Of a DNA stretch of 64,000 bases, positions 1-63,988 are shown piece after piece; position 1 is the stretch's first letter; each line of letters begins with the position of its first letter. The stretch is taken from NCBI RefSeq assembly GCF_009389715.1, contig NC_052399.1, positions 16,805,646 through 16,869,645 on the forward strand. Direction: 5' to 3'. Made by a program: the position numbers and the translations under genes. This DNA comes from Phoenix dactylifera. Lineage: Eukaryota > Streptophyta > Magnoliopsida > Arecales > Arecaceae. The notes under the pieces were generated by a model that ran no database searches, had not been told where the DNA came from, and saw only the letters and a list, made by a program, of their open reading frames with translations.

Positions 1-244
1 TAGTGGCATGATACACATCATAAAGGTGGTCAGACAAAGCACTAAGTATTCTATTATAGCAGTGGTACTCTACTTGCTCATTAGTCATTTGTGAAGGTAA
101 CTCTTGATTAGACCGTGGTTCCTCTATTGCAGATACAAGTCCTAACACAGTCAACCAATATTTAAGTTGTCTTTGCCACCTACGAAAATTTTGTCCACTA
201 AATTTTTCAGGCTTAATACTATTAGCTTCTTCCATATTTGCCAT
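1..244 (-). CDS. Ty1-copia retrotransposon gag, N-terminal part (runs off the left edge)
   Basis: Reading the minus strand from the ATG at 244-242 gives 81 open codons to the window edge. The product starts MANMEEANSIKPEKFSG and continues with a W-x-x-x-L-K-Y-W-L segment and a later YHCYNRILSALSDHLYD stretch. This is the typical start of copia-type gag (UBN2/retrotran_gag family): short acidic leader, 'F-x-G-x-N-F-x-x-W' and the capsid-like helix. Gag forms the cytoplasmic particle that packages element RNA. The rest of gag and all of pol lie outside the window. The LTR and an unusual repeat-filled leader lie upstream on the same strand (up to 2160). No stop or frameshift appears in the visible part. 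Whether the whole element is intact cannot be judged. Confidence 0.8.
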   Translation of the reverse strand, partial: MANMEEANSIKPEKFSGQNFRRWQRQLKYWLTVLGLVSAIEEPRSNQELPSQMTNEQVEYHCYNRILSALSDHLYDVYHAT

Positions 245-484
245 TCTAAATTTTAAACTCTAAGTTTTTAAAGTTTAAAAAAGGGCAGTAGAGTATTCAG
301 CTGTGAGGAAAAATAATAACAATAATGTCACTAATGAATAAATTTAAACAAGATGTTCCTAAGAGTATCTCTTAATAATATACAATGTAACAATAACTTT
401 ACTAATAATTGTAAAGGAAAACAACCCTAATGTCACCAATTAAATTTAATACTTATATCTTCACCAAAACTATTTTTTTTAAAA

Positions 485-1405
485 TCAGAACAGTAAACTT
501 TTTTTTATATATATTAAATAGTAAACTGTTTTTTTTTTAAAGCAGTAAACTATTTTCTTAATTAAAAACAGTAAACTATTTTTTATATTAAAACAATAAA
601 CTGTTTTTTTTTAATTAAAACAGTAAACTGTTTTTTTTTTAACAGTAAATTGTTTTCTTTGATTAAACAGTAAACTGTTTTTTTTTATTAAACAGTAAAC
701 TGTTTTTTTTATTTAAAACAGTAAACTGTTTTTTTTTTAATTAAACAGTAAACTGTTTTTTGTTGAAACAGTAAACTGTTTTTTTTGTTGAAACAGTAAA
801 CTGTTTTTTTTTTTTTAACAGTAAATTGTTTCCTTTGATTAAACAGTAAACTGTTTTTTTTATTAAACAGTAAACTTTTTTTTTTAATTAAAACAGTAAA
901 CTGTTTTTTTTAATTAAACAGTAAACTGTTTTTTTTGTTGAAACAGTAAACTGTTTTTTTTTGTTGAAACAGTAAACTGTTTTTTTTTTTAACAGTAAAT
1001 TGTTTCCTTTGATTAAACAGTAAACTGTTTTTTTATTAAATAGTAAACTGTTTTTTTTTATTAAAACAGTAAACTGTTTTTTTTTTTTTTGATTAAACAG
1101 TAAACTGTTTTTTTTTTTGTTAAAACAGTAAACTGTTTTTTTAATTAAAACAGTAAACTGTTTTTTTTTTTAAATTAAAACAGTAATATGTTTTCTTGAT
1201 CAAAACAGTAAACTTTTTTTTTTATTAAAACAGTAAAACAGTAAACTGTTTTTTTTAATTAAAACAGTAATCTGTTTTCTTGATCAAAACAGTAAACTTT
1301 TTTTTATTAAAACAGTAAAACAGTAAACTGTTTTTTTTTTTTTAAAATTAAACAGTAAACTGTTTTTTTTTTTTATTAAGCAGTAAACTGTTTTTTTATT
1401 AAACA
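485..1405. repeat. Array of about 36 palindromic AACAGTAAACTGTT units in the copia leader
   Basis: A tandem array with a period of roughly 23-30 bp. Each unit has a conserved core AAACAGTAAACTGTTT, which is itself a short palindrome (7-bp arms AAACAGT/ACTGTTT around AA), followed by a variable T-run and a short AT spacer such as ATTAA or GTTGA. Some units vary (AAATTGTT, TAATATG, AATCTG), and higher-order blocks recur (for example the units near 640-760, 815-950 and 990-1080), showing that several units were copied together. It lies between the element's LTR and its gag ATG, so it would be part of the 5' leader RNA, where each unit could form a small hairpin and the T-runs become A-runs on the element's sense strand. 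Confidence 0.9.
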
Positions 1406-1659
1406 GTTTAATATTAAAATTGAGAATCTAAAGCTAAACTATATATATATTATTATTTAAAGTGTATTCAGCAATGATTTCTATCAAAGATGAACAAAAA
1501 CAGTGTTCAACTATGCATCTTGCAGAATATATAAACATATAGATGAAACAATATAACAACGGTTTTAGAATGTTGATCTATCAAGATGCTTTGTAGATAT
1601 TTAAATCACATAAAAAGAAAATCTAACAATTATAATAAAATAGTGGTAAGAAAATATCT

Positions 1660-2160
1660 GGCCTGTGAGGTGTGAGAGGCACGCCAAAAGACGCACTGTC
1701 CTAAAACCGTTGTTGCCTCCCCACGTGCAGGTATTGGCGGTCAGCGACGGCTCCAAGATACAACCCAAACGGCTCACAGCGGGCCTAATCTACAGTGCAC
1801 GTCTGTAGTAGGCAGATTACCTAGTCTATATCGGTTGCCCAATAATATAGAAAATTGTAAAAGAGAGAATGGTGGTAGAGAGAAACAATGAGAGGAAGAA
1901 GAAGGGTTTTGTATTGTATTTTTTTTTTTTAGATACAAGGAATGGCTCTTTTATAGGCCTTTTGTCATCCAACCATAACGGTTGAATACTTATGGCCTCA
2001 TTAAGGCCATAATGAAAGATAATGGGAAGTTTTGAAACTTCCAAATGGAATTTGAAAAACTTAAAGATTATAACAACTCTTTTTTAAAAAATTTGGGGGT
2101 TACAAATCTTTTTTATTTACACCTCTTTAAAACTTTTCAAAATTTATTCAAATTCCAACA
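1660..2160 (-). mobile_element. Copia-type LTR on the minus strand (left edge not resolved)
   Basis: Read on the minus strand, a block beginning at 2160 with TGTTGGAATTTGAATAA is a classic copia LTR start. A TATA box (TATAAAAG, complement of 1948-1955) lies about 205 bp inside, followed by a T/A-rich region and a GC-richer R/U5-like block at about 1690-1830. The order LTR, leader, gag (ATG at 244) on one strand supports a single element whose 3' half is outside the window. I could not find a clear primer-binding site or the CA end of the LTR; the left boundary is somewhere between about 1430 and 1690. The 5 bp after 2160 are AGTTC, the expected place of a target duplication whose partner lies outside. 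Confidence 0.6.
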
Positions 2161-2730
2161 AGTTCTACGTTATTTAAATTCATAAAATTTGATGAAATGG
2201 TCGCTATTTATTATGTTAGACTTGACAACTTTCATATACAAGTTCAAGAAGTATACATGCAGCGTTGATGTTATCATGATTTAATGATGTGAAGTCAAGG
2301 AGGGTTATGAAGTATAGCGGATGTCCAAGTGCACCGCATATCAAAACATCCAAATTTGAAGCGCAGAGAAAGAAAGAAAGAAAGGACATGCTAAACATCC
2401 AATGCCAAAATTGAGTTATTTTATATTTTGCAATAAACCTTGGTTGTCACGAGCAAAAGGAGCATACTGAAAGAAATCTATAAGATTTCAGGATTTCTAC
2501 GTATGAGTTGGCAAACATTATTATCTTAAAATAATGCAGATTCTGAAATCTAAAATGAGTCCTATGCGATGATTCTGAGATTTCTCACTATCTTAACATC
2601 ATCAAGAAGGTAGTACAGTTTAGTGGAGGCCTTGAACAAATTTCACCTTTATCAAGATTGGAAGAGTATATGGGAGAGGTTTACTGATAGTTATTGAAGG
2701 GTCAACACCATAAAGAAAACATAAAAAAAA

Positions 2731-2823: not shown

Positions 2824-3428
2824 TGTTGTGGGAATAAAGGGTCTCGGACTTAGTCCCATATCGACTGAATAGCGAAAAGATCTGTGCCTTAAATGGAGGG
2901 CTCGATTATCCTTTCCTCAGGAGGTGCCTTTTAAAGGATAAAACCATGAGGGGAGTAAGCTGCCCATGACACGCGTCGCGCGATACGTACGCACTTCCCC
3001 AAAGTGGACAATACTTTCTGTGGGGACGCAGTCTTCTTTTCCTGTTCTAGTTCGATGGGGGCTAAGGTCTGAGGTCGGGGTTCCCCGACCTCAACAATGG
3101 CGCGCCAGATAGGGGCCCTTGACCTCAGTACAGACCTTTCCGCTGAGGGGGCTGATATTGTGGGAATAAAGGTTTCAGATATAGTCCCACATCGACTGAA
3201 TAACGAAAAGGTCTGTGCATTAAATGGAGGGCTTGATTACCCTTCCCTCAGGAGGCGCCTTTTAAAGGGCAAAACCGTGAGGGGAGTAAGCTGCCTACGA
3301 CACGCGTCACGCGATACGTACGCACTTCCCCAAAGCGGACAATACCTTCTGTGGGGATGCAGTTTTCTTTTCCTCTTCCAGTTCGGTGGGGGCCAAGGTC
3401 TGAGGTCGGGGGAACCCCGACCTCAACA
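2824..3428 (+). mobile_element. TRIM element, complete, 605 bp, 5-bp target duplication ATATT
   Basis: Two near-identical direct repeats, 2824-3096 (starts TGTTGTGGGAATAAAGG, ends CCTCAACA) and 3153-3428 (starts TGATATTGTGGG, ends CCTCAACA), flank only 56 bp. The internal piece begins directly after the left repeat with ATGGCGCGCCAGATAGGGG, the position and form of a tRNA primer-binding site, and ends with a purine run GAGGGGG, a polypurine tract, next to the right repeat. The 5 bp ATATT occur on both sides (2819-2823 and 3429-3433). This is the full architecture of a terminal-repeat retrotransposon in miniature: no coding capacity, mobilised by enzymes of other elements. Each LTR contains a 'TAGTCCCA(C/T)ATCGACTGAATA' type block. 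Open reading frames here are chance products of the GC-rich LTRs. Confidence 0.93.
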
Positions 3429-3433
3429 ATATT

Positions 3434-14276: not shown

Positions 14277-14280
<4 letters not shown>

Positions 14281-14370
<90 letters not shown>
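14281..14370. repeat. (AT)45 microsatellite
   Basis: Ninety bases of uninterrupted AT. It creates a spurious 'IYIYIY' open frame on the minus strand. Confidence 0.97.
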
Positions 14371-15601: not shown

Positions 15602-15974
15602 TAAGAGGCATCAACATACACATCACAAGGAATGGTGCCACCAAATGCTATTGAGAAATATTGAATGAAAAGGGAGCCCATGCTTCGCCACACCATTAAG
15701 TTATACATTCATATTTAGAAAAAAAATGGAAAATGAAGTTCAAATGTATGATCAGTTCGAGAATGATCGATGACTGCAAACTCCTAAGATGATGTCACAT
15801 GAAAACTCCCTTGCAATTCTGCAAGGCTGTTCTCTTTATGTTCTCTTTATGATGGCATGAGCTTAGATTCAGACCAGGGGATCTCACTCTTACCTAAGGA
15901 TGCAAATGGGCCGAGCCATGGGTCAACTCTTGCACTGTTTGGGCTGGGTCTCCAACCTAGACCCATCGATGTTT

Positions 15975-16445
15975 ATTTAATATTTTTAATTAAGATTTTT
16001 TTTATGAATATCCTTCCAAATATCAAATTTTACATGAATATCTTTCCAAAATTAATTTTTGCATATATGCCATTGTAAAACACTTGTTTTTCTATTTTAT
16101 CCTTTTTTTATTTTTATTTTTGCATATGTACCCACGCCATCCAAAATCGTTAAAAAATTAATGATTTCAAATTAAAATGACTAAAATACCCTTAATGGGT
16201 GGATGTGCAAAAAGAAATATTTATAAGACGATCACGATGGGGGACAAAAAAGTAGATTTAAAATTTTATTTTATTTTTAATTAAAATAAATATGGTTTTT
16301 TATTAATGGTATTAAAAGAATCGTTATATTATGGCATTTATGCAAAAACAGTATTTTATAAAGGTACAGAAATAAATATAAATTTATAGAATGTATTCAC
16401 GCAAATTTGAATTTTTTAAAAAATATTCATGCAAAAATATCATAG
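15975..16445. mobile_element. Possible old AT-rich MITE (copy B counterpart 17262-17700)
   Basis: An AT-rich block whose two ends are roughly inverted: ATTTTTTTTATGAATATCC at the left and the complement of GATATTTTTGCATGAATATTTT at the right. It contains the repeated phrase ATGAATATC(C/T)TTCCAAA. It is present in both duplicate copies, so it predates the duplication. No clear target duplication was found and the limits are approximate. It could also be plain AT-rich spacer. Confidence 0.35.
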
Positions 16446-18185
16446 GTTTCTTTCCAACTTTAACCAAAGAGAAGCATAGAACGGGCATCTTGTAAGCATA
16501 AAAGATACATCAAGAAAGAAAATCACCTAGTGAGATGCCCATCAACCAAGCTTTTAGATAACTCCTCCATCTAATTTTTGAGGAAACGATCAGGCAAAGG
16601 AGCCTGATCACTTTCAGCTGGTCCACCTATTGGTGTTGTTATACGATAATCAAGAAGTCCACCTATTGTGGTGACTGATAAAGGACATTAGGTTGTGAAA
16701 TTACTACAATACTACAGCATCAGCAGTCTTCCACCATTAAAAATTCTTTAGCATGGTCAAGATCATCCCATGATAAATTTAACAGCAACCAAGTCAGGTT
16801 TCTTTTCTTCGGCACAAGTGTTCTCAAACAGCCTTCATCATTACATCAAACCTAATTAAGCTCCAAAACTCAGCAACAAGAGGATATTGAGAGGCATCAA
16901 CATACACATCACCAGGAATGGTGCCACCAAGTGCTATTGAGAAATATTGAATGAAAAGGGAGCCCATGCTTCGCCACACCATTAAGATATACATTCATAT
17001 CTTAAAAAAAGCTGAAAATGAAGTTCAAATGTATGATCAGTTCGAGAATGATCGATGACTGCAAACTCCTAAGATGATGTCACATGAAAACTCCCTTGCA
17101 ATGCTACAAGGCTGTTCTCTTTATGATGGCATGAGCTTAGATTCAGAACGGGGACCTCATTCTCGCCTAAGGATGCAAATGGGCCAGGCCATAGGTCAAC
17201 TCTTGCACTACTTGGGCTGAGTCTCCAACCCAAGCCCAATATTGACGTTTATTTAATATTTTTAATTAAGATTTTTTTATAAATATCCTCTTAAATATCG
17301 AATTTTATATGAATATCGTTCCAAAATTAATTTTTGCATATATACCATCGTAAAATACTTGTTTTGCTATTTTATCCTTTTTTTATTTTTATTTTTGCAT
17401 ATGTACCCATGTCATCTAACGATGTTAAAAAATTAACGATTTCAAATTAAAATGACTAAAATATGATGTGCAAACAAAATATTTATAAGGTAATCACGAT
17501 GGGGGACAAAAAAGTAATTTTAAAATTTCAATTTATTTTTAATTAAAATAAATATGATTTTTATAAATGGTGTTAAAATTGTTATATTAGGGGCATTTAT
17601 GCAAAAGCAGTGTTTTATAAGGGTACAGAAATAAATATAAATTTTAAGAAAGTATTCACGCAAATTTAAATTTTTAAAAGAGGATTCATGCAAAAATATC
17701 ATAGTTTTCTTTACAACTTTAATCAATGAGAACTATAGAACTGGCATCTCGAAAGCGCAAAAAATAAATCAAGAAAGAAAATCACCTAGTGAGATGCCCA
17801 TCAACCAAGCTTTTAGATAACTCGTCCATCTAATTTTTGAGGAAATGATCAGGCAAAGAAGCCTGATCACTTTCAGCTGGTCCATCAAATTAGCAATTAT
17901 ATGTTGCATACATGAAGCCATATAACTATTATAAAAATCAGGGATATCGTGTATATTAGATTTTGATTTCCACATAACAAGAACAAGATTAAATAAAAAT
18001 CCAGAAATAAGAAATGTGACATTATGAAACCTGGAAAAGTAAGTAATTTGACCAAGTCTCGTCTGCACTCATTATCATTTATCACTGATGCACTTCCTTC
18101 CTTGAATAATTATTACATATCAGCAGAATAAAATCATTCATGGGAATTAGCAATTAACATATTGACAAGTTTGGTAATTTTAATT

Positions 18186-60537: not shown

Positions 60538-63495
60538 TCATCCATCCACAGCCGGAAGCAGCTCTTCCCATGTTGTGATCTTCTTTCTCGGTTTGTTTCT
60601 CAGTTTACCCTCCATCCTTTCTTTCGAGTCTATCTTTTCCCATCCACTGAACGGCACAAATCTGACATTCTTATGTTCTAGAGCCTGGAGGAGCCCCCGT
60701 CTGCCTGGTTTGGGCGAGCCTGAAGCCGGCGTCAATAACCCATTCTTGAAATCTTCCAAGATACTTGCAACCTACCATGTTAGCACCAGATATCAGTTAT
60801 GCCGGGTCAAAATGTTGGACCACAACTGGAAAACCCAGCAAAATCTCCCCACCAATTCAATTTTCAGAAGCAAACATTAAGTCCTTGATCTTAGGAGATT
60901 GGGTAAAAAAGAATAAATGGATTAGGAATTGAATCTGCTCCTTATGAGATAAAAGACTAATCAGAAGTACTATAAAATTTCCTTTTTTTTTAGCATGCTT
61001 CGAATGTTCAAAAAGGAATCTGCGGATTCTTCTTGGTAGTAGAAATAATAGAAAAGGTGGTAGTAATTATTATGTACATGCCAATATACCAATACGCATA
61101 TCACATCTTTTATTGTAATTTTACTTGTGGCAACAAAAGTCAAATCGTACTATATAATAATTCCTATTCTCCATCCAAATAATAAATGAAAAATTTAAGC
61201 ACAATACTTCTCTATAGGTCTCTACCCAAGAGAAAGACCCAAATCATTCTGTGTGTAACAATTTCTGCTCTGGGATTTGCATGTACACATATTTTGTTAT
61301 AATTTTGTTTTGCCTCCCATTTGTATGATGTTTCCAGTAATGGAGCTTATAGTATGACCATGACACTTTCTATTATGGATTGTGTCAGTCAATCTAGGTC
61401 AGTTTTCATTATGAAAAGCTGCAAACTTACTGCTCCCAAGAATTTCCCACGCACAAAATTCCATGTGTATATTTTTAACTTGTAGAAATTCTAGTCTTTC
61501 TGAATGTTGCTACTATGTACTTCTGGTGACCCACGAGTGATTGAATCATATCAGTATTACTTACAGTTTCTTCAGCACAGTATAGATTTGTAGCAATGAT
61601 CCCTGTTGGTCCTCTTTTCAACCAACCAGCAACATACAAGCCTTGCTCAACAATTGCATGCCCTGCCTGATCCCAGCTTAGAACCCTGCCTTTCATGTTA
61701 GGAACTACACCTGTTAAAAGCCATTAATGAAACAATCACTTCAGTTAGATAGCTTAATGTAGGATATAATATTGACTGGGTTCGGTAGCGTTTAAATTTG
61801 CAGCTGACCCCTATATTCATCAAAAGGTAATCCATCAACTGGTACTGACTTGTAACCAATGCTTTTCAACACCAGCCTAAACACATTAAGAATGTTAAGT
61901 TAGCTAAAAACCTGAAGTTAGCCAAAAGAAACACAGGCACTGAGAGCCAAAATTACAAAAGCTGATGTGGTAGTAGCATGCTTAAAATGACAGCACACAG
62001 AATGGGAAATACCCACCCACATTTGAGATCTTCAAACTGTCCCGTTCCTACTGCCACCTGTTTGCCAGAAGCACCATTTTCTGCATCACCAAAAATTGTT
62101 AAAGAAACTGAGCTCAGCAGCCAATTTAAAGAGTGTAACAAATTCTCACCAAAAATAAGCATAACAAAATATTAAAAGCTCCACGTATTAGTTCTGCAGA
62201 TCCAACCTTTCAAACATGTCTTCTCAAGGCGCACACGGCTAACAGTGTCACCACTCTCTGAAGGCAAAAATCTGTCAGGTTTTCTGAAGAACATGAAGTG
62301 GAGTTCTCGCTGGCCAACAATATCATGTTGTTGATGGGAAGTTGCTGCTTTGGAGAGTAACTCATAAACTCTTCGTTGTATTCTACTTTTCTTTAATTCT
62401 TCCTAGAATTAGCAAAAACAATTCGAAGTAGTGTGAAAAAAAATCAAAGTAGAGGAGAAAATTAAAAGCAAGTTCATGTAATACTGTGTTTAGTAGTGAT
62501 TGGTAATGGAAGGGAAGCATTGGTATTGTAAAATTGACAATTTCAACAACTAGATGGAAGATCTTAAGGAATGTATGTTACGAATAAGATGGAAAACTGG
62601 CAACATTGACAGCAAATATTGTAGAAAAATACTAGAATGGAGCAATGAAAATGATTTAGCAATCAAGGTTGAAAATTCTTTTTCATGATATTCTGGTTTA
62701 GATGGAAGAGTTAATAAGCCGGACATTTATGGAATAAGTAAAACTGGAAAAGTGAAATTAAATCTGACAGATAAAGCCATTTGGGAGTACAAGAATGGTA
62801 TCACCAAATACAAACAAATGTGTTGGTTGACAGGCTGGCATATCTGATTGAGCAATAAAACATCACTACATATGTTGTGAAATGAAAAATCAACTGAAAT
62901 CTCACTCAAATACAACATTTGTTTCATTGTCCTAGGATAACATAAACGAACCTCATCAGCCGGCGATGTCGCTAGGTCAGCTTTCTGGATGTGAATATGC
63001 AGATCTTTGACACCTGAATAAATCAGACAATAACATTCATGTAGGTGGAAAAAAATACTTAAAGGAAACTCCTGGCAGTATCAATACATAACTTCAATAA
63101 GAATACATGCTTTCAGGATGTGTTATTGAATCACGAAAAAGAGGATTCAAATTATACTTTTTCATGATAGTAAGTCCTGCAGGTTGAGTCATACCAAGAA
63201 TTTCACGAAGTTCCTTTGCAGTGCAAGCTGCCTGCACTGGGCCTCTTCTCCCAACCAAGTACACCTTCCTTTAGCCAGAACAAACAGAATCAAAATACCA
63301 TCAAAATGACGTGCTTTAGAAGCAAAGCAGAACTAAGAATTAACAAAACTAATTTAATCATTGTTAGCTAGTTTAAACAACAAACCTTATGGTGCTCTCA
63401 CGAAGGGAAGTTAAAGCATGCTCAGCGATATCTGTTGTTTCCAGTTCGTTTATAGGTCGCAAAAGAATACGAGCAACATCAAGAGCTACATTACC
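60538..63495 (-). CDS. Mitochondrial NADPH:adrenodoxin/ferredoxin oxidoreductase, C-terminal 317 aa
   Basis: Eight exons on the minus strand: 63495-63386, 63268-63195, 63013-62952, 62402-62207, 62080-62017, 61876-61809, 61710-61565 and 60771-60538 (stop TGA). All phases agree. The 5' exons lie beyond the right edge. Visible motifs: [14 protein letters not shown], the NADP-binding start; [21 protein letters not shown], where the Arg pair contacts the NADPH phosphate; [42 protein letters not shown]; then [19 protein letters not shown], the FAD-contacting C-terminal motif. The last exon, with [14 protein letters not shown] and KITTWEELL, matches the end of the family. The enzyme passes electrons from NADPH through FAD to a mitochondrial ferredoxin for biotin and Fe-S cluster chemistry. 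All residues expected in this part are present. The first visible exon borders a triplicated intron segment. Confidence 0.95.
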
Positions 63496-63988
63496 CTGAA
63501 GGTGACTTTATTTGGAAACTGTTGTAACTTCATTATAATGGTAACATTGGTTAAGGAAAAGAAAGCTAGATGCTGAAATTAGAAAAGTAAAAAACTATCT
63601 TTCTAGTGAATACTTATTAAGACCTTTTCTATTCACTACAACAATAAAAATAGCTGCATTACCCTGAAGGTGACTTTACTTGGAAACTGTTGTAACTTCA
63701 TTATAATGGTAACATTGGTTAAGGAAAAAAAAGCTAGATGCTGAAATTAGAAAAGTGAAAAACTATCTTTCTAGTGAATATTTATTAAGACCTTTTCTAT
63801 TCACTACAACAATAAAAATAGCTGCATTACCCTGAAGGTGACTTTATTTGGAAACTATTGTAACTTCATTATAATGGTAACATTGGTTAAGGAAAAGAAA
63901 GCTAGATGCTGAAATTAGAAAAGTAAAAAACTATCTTTCTAGTGAATATTTATTAAGACCTTTTCTATTCACTACAACAATAAAAATC
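63485..63988. repeat. 168-bp unit repeated three times across a splice acceptor
   Basis: TTACCCTGAAGGTGACTTTA recurs at 63491, 63659 and 63827, an exact 168-bp period, with copies about 97% identical. The unit includes the last intron bases and the first 11 bases of the exon that starts at 63495, so the acceptor (CTTCAG followed by GGTAATG on the gene's strand) exists three times. It ends at about 63988. Confidence 0.95.

What the first reader, a model, noticed from the sequence alone, without database searches (positions are those of the whole stretch)
485..1405. Three dozen tandem mini-palindromes inside a copia retrotransposon leader
Each unit has an AAACAGTAAACTGTTT core that is self-complementary, spaced by T-runs, and the array fills most of the DNA between LTR and gag. 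In the RNA it would be a string of small hairpins separated by A-runs. It may have grown by slippage during reverse transcription, or act in packaging or translation. I know of no described copia leader with such an array.
Basis: partly seen in the sequence, partly recalled or inferred. Interest (0 to 1): 0.7.

Follow-up and report, generated by a model that had tools for sequence, protein, structure and literature searches.

The report
Palindrome array in plant retrotransposon leader
A family of recently active plant jumping genes carries, just ahead of its first gene, a string of 12 to 41 near-identical 25-letter palindromes whose number changes when the element copies itself but hardly while it sits in the chromosome, which suggests a kept regulatory or packaging signal rather than a local satellite.

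Summary
The array is real: about 35 units of ~25 bp at 467-1397. The element lies on the minus strand: 5' LTR 2160-1571, primer site, array, gag ATG at 244. Its LTRs differ at 2 of 590 sites and the 5-bp target duplication is intact. It is a Ty1/copia element with the self-priming site described for the TAR lineage. A search of the same genome with flanking sequence only gave 40 copies; 40 of 40 carry the array at the same place, with 12-41 units. Those leaders hold 423 of the genome's 479 exact 16-mers; the other 56 match the control of 55. Duplicated copies of one insertion keep the unit number (7 of 8 pairs), whereas none of 14 close pairs of different insertions does (median difference 6.5 units), so it changes at transposition. 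Sister families at 48-56% gag identity lack it (0 of 7). The core diverges about sevenfold less than the spacers, but its arms show no compensatory changes, which fits protein sites better than hairpins. Best reading: a leader binding-site array, analogous to Drosophila gypsy and copia leader arrays. Function is inferred.

The parts
1571..2160 (-). 5' LTR, TGTTG...CAACA, 590 bp; 99.5% identical to the 3' LTR at G000:C8:16800747-16801337 (outside the window)
   Evidence: target duplication GAACT on both sides
1948..1955 (-). TATA box (TATAAAAG) in the LTR; transcription start assumed about 30 nt further on
   Evidence: start site not measured
1701..1714 (-). self-primer segment AACAACGGTTTTAG in the 5' LTR
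   Evidence: complementary to 1555-1568
1555..1568 (-). primer binding site CTAAAACCGTTGTT, 2 nt after the LTR end; pairs with the LTR itself (self-priming type)
   Evidence: 31 of 40 copies keep at least 11 nt of this complement at the same spacing
1406..1570 (-). leader segment A (165 nt) before the array
1434..1538 (-). short upstream frame of 34 codons ahead of the array
1507..1518 (-). upstream frame of 3 codons (ATGCATAGTTGA)
467..1405 (-). tandem array of about 35 quasi-palindromic 25-nt units, sense core AAACAGTTTACTGTTT plus an A/T spacer
245..466 (-). leader segment B (222 nt) between array and gag, with a splice-acceptor-like TTATTTTTCCTCACAG ending 56 nt before the ATG
   Evidence: the acceptor-like site is not significant
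1..244 (-). start of gag (ATG at 244-242); the gag-pol frame stays open, 1330 codons between stops, beyond the window edge
   Evidence: frame; Retrotran_gag_2, rve, RVT_2 on three separate pieces of L009

Best explanation
Shown: the array is a fixed, length-variable part of the 5' untranslated leader of one young, self-priming Ty1/copia family. It travels almost only with that family, it is present in every copy found by a search that did not use it, and its unit number differs between close insertions but hardly between duplicates of one insertion. Inferred: during reverse transcription the enzyme jumps between repeat units, adding or dropping whole units and blocks. Inferred and less certain: the array is kept because its 16-bp dyad-symmetric core is a repeated recognition site for a host (or element) protein, acting on the DNA as an enhancer- or insulator-like array next to the LTR promoter, as in the leaders of Drosophila gypsy and copia. 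On this reading unit number would tune its strength.
For: 40 of 40 copies carry 12-41 units at the same place, though the query was only leader segment B plus gag start. 423 of 479 exact 16-mers genome-wide sit in those 40 leaders; the other 56 match the reversed-pattern control of 55. Pairs sharing upstream flank: 7 of 8 have equal unit number, 1 differs by one unit. Pairs with different flanks at <=0.5% distance: 0 of 14 equal, median 6.5 units apart; at <=1%: 2 of 66 equal. Core differences 0.062 per site against 0.43 edits per site for spacers among 69 unit types seen in two or more younger copies. The TT centre, unpaired in a hairpin, is at 99.9-100% in 705 units of the 27 younger copies, and arms show no compensatory excess (2 both-side changes, 2.9 expected by shuffling): the pattern of a sequence-read site. 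Known precedent: arrays of protein sites in retrotransposon 5'UTRs.
Against: No protein, binding or expression data. Unit scanning was anchored on the core (up to 4 mismatches of 16), which favours core over spacer; 1 of 705 younger units and 14 of 1043 in all sit at the limit. Core and spacer were measured differently (substitutions against edits with A-runs collapsed). In the 13 other, mostly older copies the centre is at 96-98% and not the most conserved part. Homogenisation by strand transfer can keep cores alike without selection. The array lies downstream of the promoter, so an RNA role is equally well placed. Absence in sister families rests on 7 leaders; no other species could be examined.
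Confidence: 0.42

Rival explanations
1. Neutral by-product: strand transfer on repeats during reverse transcription keeps regenerating an array in a leader that tolerates any AT-rich, ATG-poor filler, as with the family-specific tandem arrays in the 3' regions of Ogre and Retand elements.
For: Length is very plastic at transposition. Array edges are degenerate while inner units are more alike and form higher-order blocks, as expected from unequal exchange. Sister leaders L162-L165 have quite different AT-rich repeats (periods 61-102) and L160, L161 and L166 have none, so leaders of this lineage can take on unrelated repeats. Ogre and Retand precedent.
Against: None of 40 copies has collapsed below 12 units despite frequent block loss, although the most distant relative examined has only about 6. 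Core and spacers differ about sevenfold in divergence.
Confidence: 0.33
2. RNA role: the self-complementary units pair between two genomic RNAs (and within one), serving dimerisation or packaging, like the PAL sequences of Ty1 or retroviral dimer sites.
For: Unit-unit duplex -14.6 kcal/mol against -3.2 for the hairpin; array folding z from -7 to -19 in 6 copies (20 shuffles each), the leader after the array near 0; it lies between primer site and gag, where packaging signals usually are (recalled); Ty1 PAL precedent. Among distinct cores of the younger copies 12 of 43 changed pairs stay pairable, against 7 of 42 for random single changes, a slight lean this way.
Against: No compensatory excess in the arms; in the younger copies the unpaired centre is at least as conserved as the stem; two units pair about as well in cis as in trans; any palindromic repeat gives a strong z-score.
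Confidence: 0.17
3. Leader intron: primer site, upstream frames and array are removed from the gag mRNA by splicing and kept only in the genomic RNA.
For: The best donor-like site (TAG|GTAATC, LTR) and the best acceptor-like site (55-56 nt before gag) of the transcript flank the array in 6 of 6 copies scanned; in 3 of 4 sister copies scanned (L160, L161, L162) the best acceptor-like site is 29-31 nt before gag. BARE1 of barley uses spliced and unspliced RNA pools (PMC3735527, passages).
Against: The window acceptor score is reached by 15% of shuffles (1.6% for L162); in the fourth sister copy, L163, the best site is elsewhere; the score matrix was recalled, not trained; the array is A-rich in sense (48% A, 34% T), whereas plant introns are U-rich; a planned check on 20 more copies failed.
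Confidence: 0.08

Closest known systems
Drosophila gypsy insulator and copia 5'UTR repeat (PMC7168160, passages)
   Same: Tandem repeats between LTR and gag of an LTR retrotransposon; gypsy has 12 degenerate Su(Hw) sites in 350 bp, strength depending on site number.
   Different: Plant-like host genome, unrelated repeat sequence, 12-41 dyad-symmetric 16-bp cores; no binding protein known; site number here is shown to change with transposition.
[quoted passage not shown]
   Same: Family-specific, length-variable arrays inside plant LTR retrotransposons; [quoted passage not shown]
   Different: Those are Ty3/gypsy and lie before the 3' LTR; this is Ty1/copia and lies in the 5' leader, with no sign of satellite escape.
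TAR-lineage self-priming Ty1/copia elements (PMC6317226, passages)
   Same: Copia domains and a primer site complementary to the element's own 5' LTR.
   Different: No leader array appears in the passages read; sister families here look self-priming too but lack this array.
Ty1 PAL / kissing-loop dimerisation signals (PMC5454406, passages)
   Same: Self-complementary sequences near the 5' end of a copia-type RNA.
   Different: Ty1 has three PAL sequences; here dozens of units in tandem, and no evidence of dimerisation.
Sirevirus LTR repeated motifs (PMC2829016, abstract and section list)
   Same: Many symmetric short motifs in a non-coding region of a plant copia element, suggested to be regulatory.
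   Different: Those lie in the LTR, carry CGG-CCG and form CpG islands; these are AT-rich and in the leader.

Membership tests
Ty1/copia LTR retrotransposon | Paired LTRs with target duplication; gag, then integrase ahead of RVT_2 reverse transcriptase | tested here: met
   LTRs 99.5% identical, GAACT on both sides; Retrotran_gag_2, gag_pre-integrs, rve and RVT_2 in that order on three separate pieces
TAR lineage | Self-priming primer site (complement of at least 10 nt, 0-5 nt after the 5' LTR, found within the LTR) | tested here: met
   14 nt, offset 2; at least 11 nt at the same spacing in 31 of 40 copies, some with matching changes on both sides; criterion from PMC6317226
TAR lineage | Placement with TAR in a tree of RT, RNase H and integrase domains | not tested
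   no reference set of lineage sequences at hand
Retrotransposon 5'UTR insulator/enhancer array (gypsy, copia) | Tandem repeats between LTR and gag | tested here: met
Retrotransposon 5'UTR insulator/enhancer array (gypsy, copia) | Repeats bound by a host protein with enhancer or insulator effect | not testable with these tools
   needs binding and reporter assays
3'-region tandem arrays of Tat/Ogre/Retand elements | Array between pol and 3' LTR of a Ty3/gypsy element | tested here: not met
   array is in the 5' leader of a copia element; [quoted passage not shown]
Satellite DNA | Arrays amplified outside the element | tested here: not met
   423 of 479 exact cores lie in 40 leaders; the remaining 56 match the control of 55; exact cores only
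RNA hairpin/dimerisation signal | Compensatory changes that keep pairing | tested here: not met
   2 both-side changes against 2.9 by shuffling, 50 distinct cores from 263 units of 8 copies

The most novel reading that the evidence does not exclude
A plant copia family carries a self-renewing array of dyad-symmetric protein sites in its leader, a plant counterpart of the gypsy insulator, whose site number is re-dealt at reverse transcription, so each new insertion arrives with a different regulatory strength.
Probability: 0.22. Interest if true: 0.72.

Novelty: new variant of a known kind. Interest (0 to 1): 0.52.

Why it matters
In the plant papers seen here, tandem arrays inside retrotransposons are discussed mainly as raw material for satellites. 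This family gives a natural experiment: the same array inherited with the chromosome (nearly stable) and through transposition (changed), which ties array change to the transposition cycle. If the units bind a host factor, new insertions would bring a regulatory block of varying strength, testable with existing plant binding data.

Tried and rejected
Local satellite: rejected, because all 40 family copies found share it and almost no exact cores lie elsewhere. Chance: rejected. Viral collection: the 15-mer gave 93 stretches; each of the 80 rows listed has a single match, so chance; the gag query gave one weak hit at 31% identity. Rfam: two hits below the families' cut-offs in window 1-2400, none up to E 0.1 in L161 and L162. 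Ribosome shunting: in the 27 younger copies the two upstream frames ahead of the array end 40 nt or more before it, no close fit to the classical spacing (which I recall); not pursued. Absence of ATG in the array (0 against 5.3 in shuffles for the window copy; 6 of 8 copies have none) follows largely from the unit lacking ATG and is not used as evidence. Pfam on the 81-aa gag start alone gave nothing. A check of acceptor-like sites in 20 further sister copies failed because my gag motif ran past the end of the fetched stretches; no count was made from them.

Full report
What is there. The array was confirmed at 467-1397: period 25, 35.5 copies, 35 cores and 20 exact 16-mers. The window is G000:C8:16805646-16869645 of a 773-Mb genome in 2391 contigs; the copia elements point to a plant, but the species was not identified. 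Fetching the stretch left of the window showed the second LTR: window 1571-2160 matches C8:16800747-16801337 at 99.5% over 591 bp, and a gag-pol frame of 1330 codons is open between them on the minus strand. The LTRs run TGTTGG...TCAACA, differ at 2 of 590 sites plus one gap, and are flanked by GAACT on both sides; at two commonly used plant rates (recalled) that is 0.13-0.24 million years. Of seven other copies tested the same way, a 3' LTR was found for six (one only in part), at distances of 0.002-0.033, with exact 5-bp duplications seen in L013, L015 and L017, and in L016 when its upstream flank is set against its downstream flank; L011 (one mismatch) and L014 have none. Three separate pieces of the frame match Retrotran_gag_2, gag_pre-integrs plus rve, and RVT_2, the copia order. 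Just after the LTR, CTAAAACCGTTGTT is complementary to AACAACGGTTTTAG inside the LTR. That is the self-priming arrangement that a survey of 5410 Ty1/copia elements assigns to the TAR lineage (PMC6317226, abstract and passages). At least 11 nt of the complement is kept at the same spacing in 31 of 40 copies, including copies where primer site and LTR changed together; of the nine misses, four (L150, L151, L153, L156) had the LTR end misplaced in or near an AT run and were not fairly tested. I did not place the element in a domain tree.

Is it a family trait? Seven other array loci, which hold all the cores printed's cut-off list, were fetched; 7 of 7 have LTR, leader A, array, leader B and gag in the same order. 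A search with leader B plus gag start only, so blind to the array, scored 40 of 48 candidates and all 40 matched at 91-100%. All 40 were examined: 40 of 40 carry the array at the same place, with 12-41 units (median 25), and an ATG at the gag start. These 40 leaders contain 423 of the 479 exact 16-mers of the genome; the remaining 56 match the 55 hits of the reversed control. There is thus no sign of escape into satellites. A gag-piece protein search scored 150 of 13,007 candidates and gave 158 matches, not all listed: 39 at 83-100% identity, then a gap to 56% and below. Of three members seen only there, one was fetched: the most distant (83%, L159) has about 6 units, by origin or by decay; the other two (on C267 and C367) were not examined. 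Of the sister families (48-56%), 7 leaders were fetched: 0 of 7 have the unit. Three (L160, L161, L166) have 540-nt leaders without tandem repeats, four (L162-L165) have 837-878-nt leaders with other AT-rich repeats. L161 and L162 are 79-81% alike from about leader position 100 on, except for a block of about 256 nt where L162 has its repeats.

How it changes. Writing each unit as core plus spacer shows a shared end near gag, a shared start in several longer arrays, and block gains and losses in between, with higher-order blocks of about six units (read by eye). The cleanest result comes from copies that share upstream flanking DNA, that is one insertion duplicated in the chromosome or held on two contigs. 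In the 8 shared-flank pairs the unit number is equal (7) or differs by one (1), at distances of 0.1-1.0%; their lengths differ by 0-25 bp and single units have changed by small mutations (2-13 unit spellings per pair). Among pairs with different flanks at most 0.5% apart, 0 of 14 have equal unit numbers (median difference 6.5 units, 180 bp); at most 1% apart, 2 of 66. Pairs are not statistically independent, and six of the eight shared-flank pairs come from one group, but the contrast is large. Array length therefore changes in the transposition cycle, most simply by strand transfer between units during reverse transcription (inferred).

What it might do. Among 69 unit types found in two or more of the 27 younger copies, cores differ from the commonest form at 0.062 per site and spacers at 0.43 edits per site. 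The scan is anchored on the core, which favours it; of 705 units in those copies 1 sits at the mismatch limit. In the 8 copies, by my tally of its columns, 118 of 208 core changes fall on the four C or G positions of CAG and CTG, 90 of them C-to-T or G-to-A, as CHG methylation would give; inherited changes are counted many times. The TT centre, which cannot pair in a hairpin, is at 99.9-100% in the younger copies; in the 13 others it is at 96-98% and some stem positions are higher. Arms show no compensation: 2 both-side changes against 2.9 by shuffling among 50 distinct cores of 8 copies; in the younger copies' distinct cores 12 changed pairs stay pairable and 31 do not, where random single changes would give 7 to 35, a slight lean towards pairing. 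RNA pairing is strong on paper: array z of -12.8 with 20 shuffles and -7 to -19 in six copies, with sister leaders at -1.8 to -5.5; unit duplex -14.6 against hairpin -3.2 kcal/mol. But a palindromic repeat must score so, and pairing in cis and trans is about equally stable. I therefore rank a sequence-read (protein-site) array first, a neutral by-product close behind, RNA dimerisation third, and a leader intron last; the splice-like sites are suggestive only.

Comparison with what is known. [quoted passage not shown] In plants the arrays in the passages I read lie between pol and the 3' LTR of Ty3/gypsy elements (PMC7004042, PMC11963269, passages). Ten paper searches were answered. Nothing in their listings (two of which were cut: 15 of 23 and 10 of 102), nor in the passages I read, showed a plant copia leader with such an array; the library holds open-licence papers only, so this is weak evidence of novelty.

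Verdict. It is a new variant of a known kind.

Noticed in passing
L161 and L162, last ~430 nt of leader and start of gag: Two sister leaders (gag ~52-53% identical to the window family) are 79% alike there; by eye a stretch of about 100 nt (GTGTCTAAGAAAAGCTTGTC...GATCTGGCT) is nearly invariant among the sister tails printed. No Rfam match up to E 0.1. It may be a cis-acting signal of those families.
   Followed up: partly
L162-L165, leader: Leaders of 837-878 nt with AT-rich repeats (periods 61-102) and no ATG; the block is absent from the otherwise similar leader of L161: a second, unrelated leader expansion in the same lineage.
   Followed up: partly
L127, L129, L138, L141-L143: LTR identity to the window copy is 89-93% while the gag start is 98.8-99.6%; divergence is concentrated at LTR positions 180-360 (and 1-120 in L127) with 360-540 at 95-100%, suggesting mosaic LTRs.
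   Followed up: partly
L013, L014, L149-L157: 11 of these 11 more divergent copies have 383-451 nt between last unit and gag against about 245 in the younger ones, with extra upstream ATGs: probably an older leader version.
   Followed up: no
63484-63987: Three tandem copies of a 168-bp unit, 97% alike, running nearly to the window's end.
   Followed up: no
14280-14370: Perfect TA run, 45.5 copies.
   Followed up: no
15604-16625 and 16890-17884; 2826-3098 and 3158-3430: Direct duplications at 88% and 89% identity.
   Followed up: no
L163:1-314: GC-rich tandem array, period 69, 4.6 copies, upstream of a sister element's leader, possibly inside its LTR.
   Followed up: no
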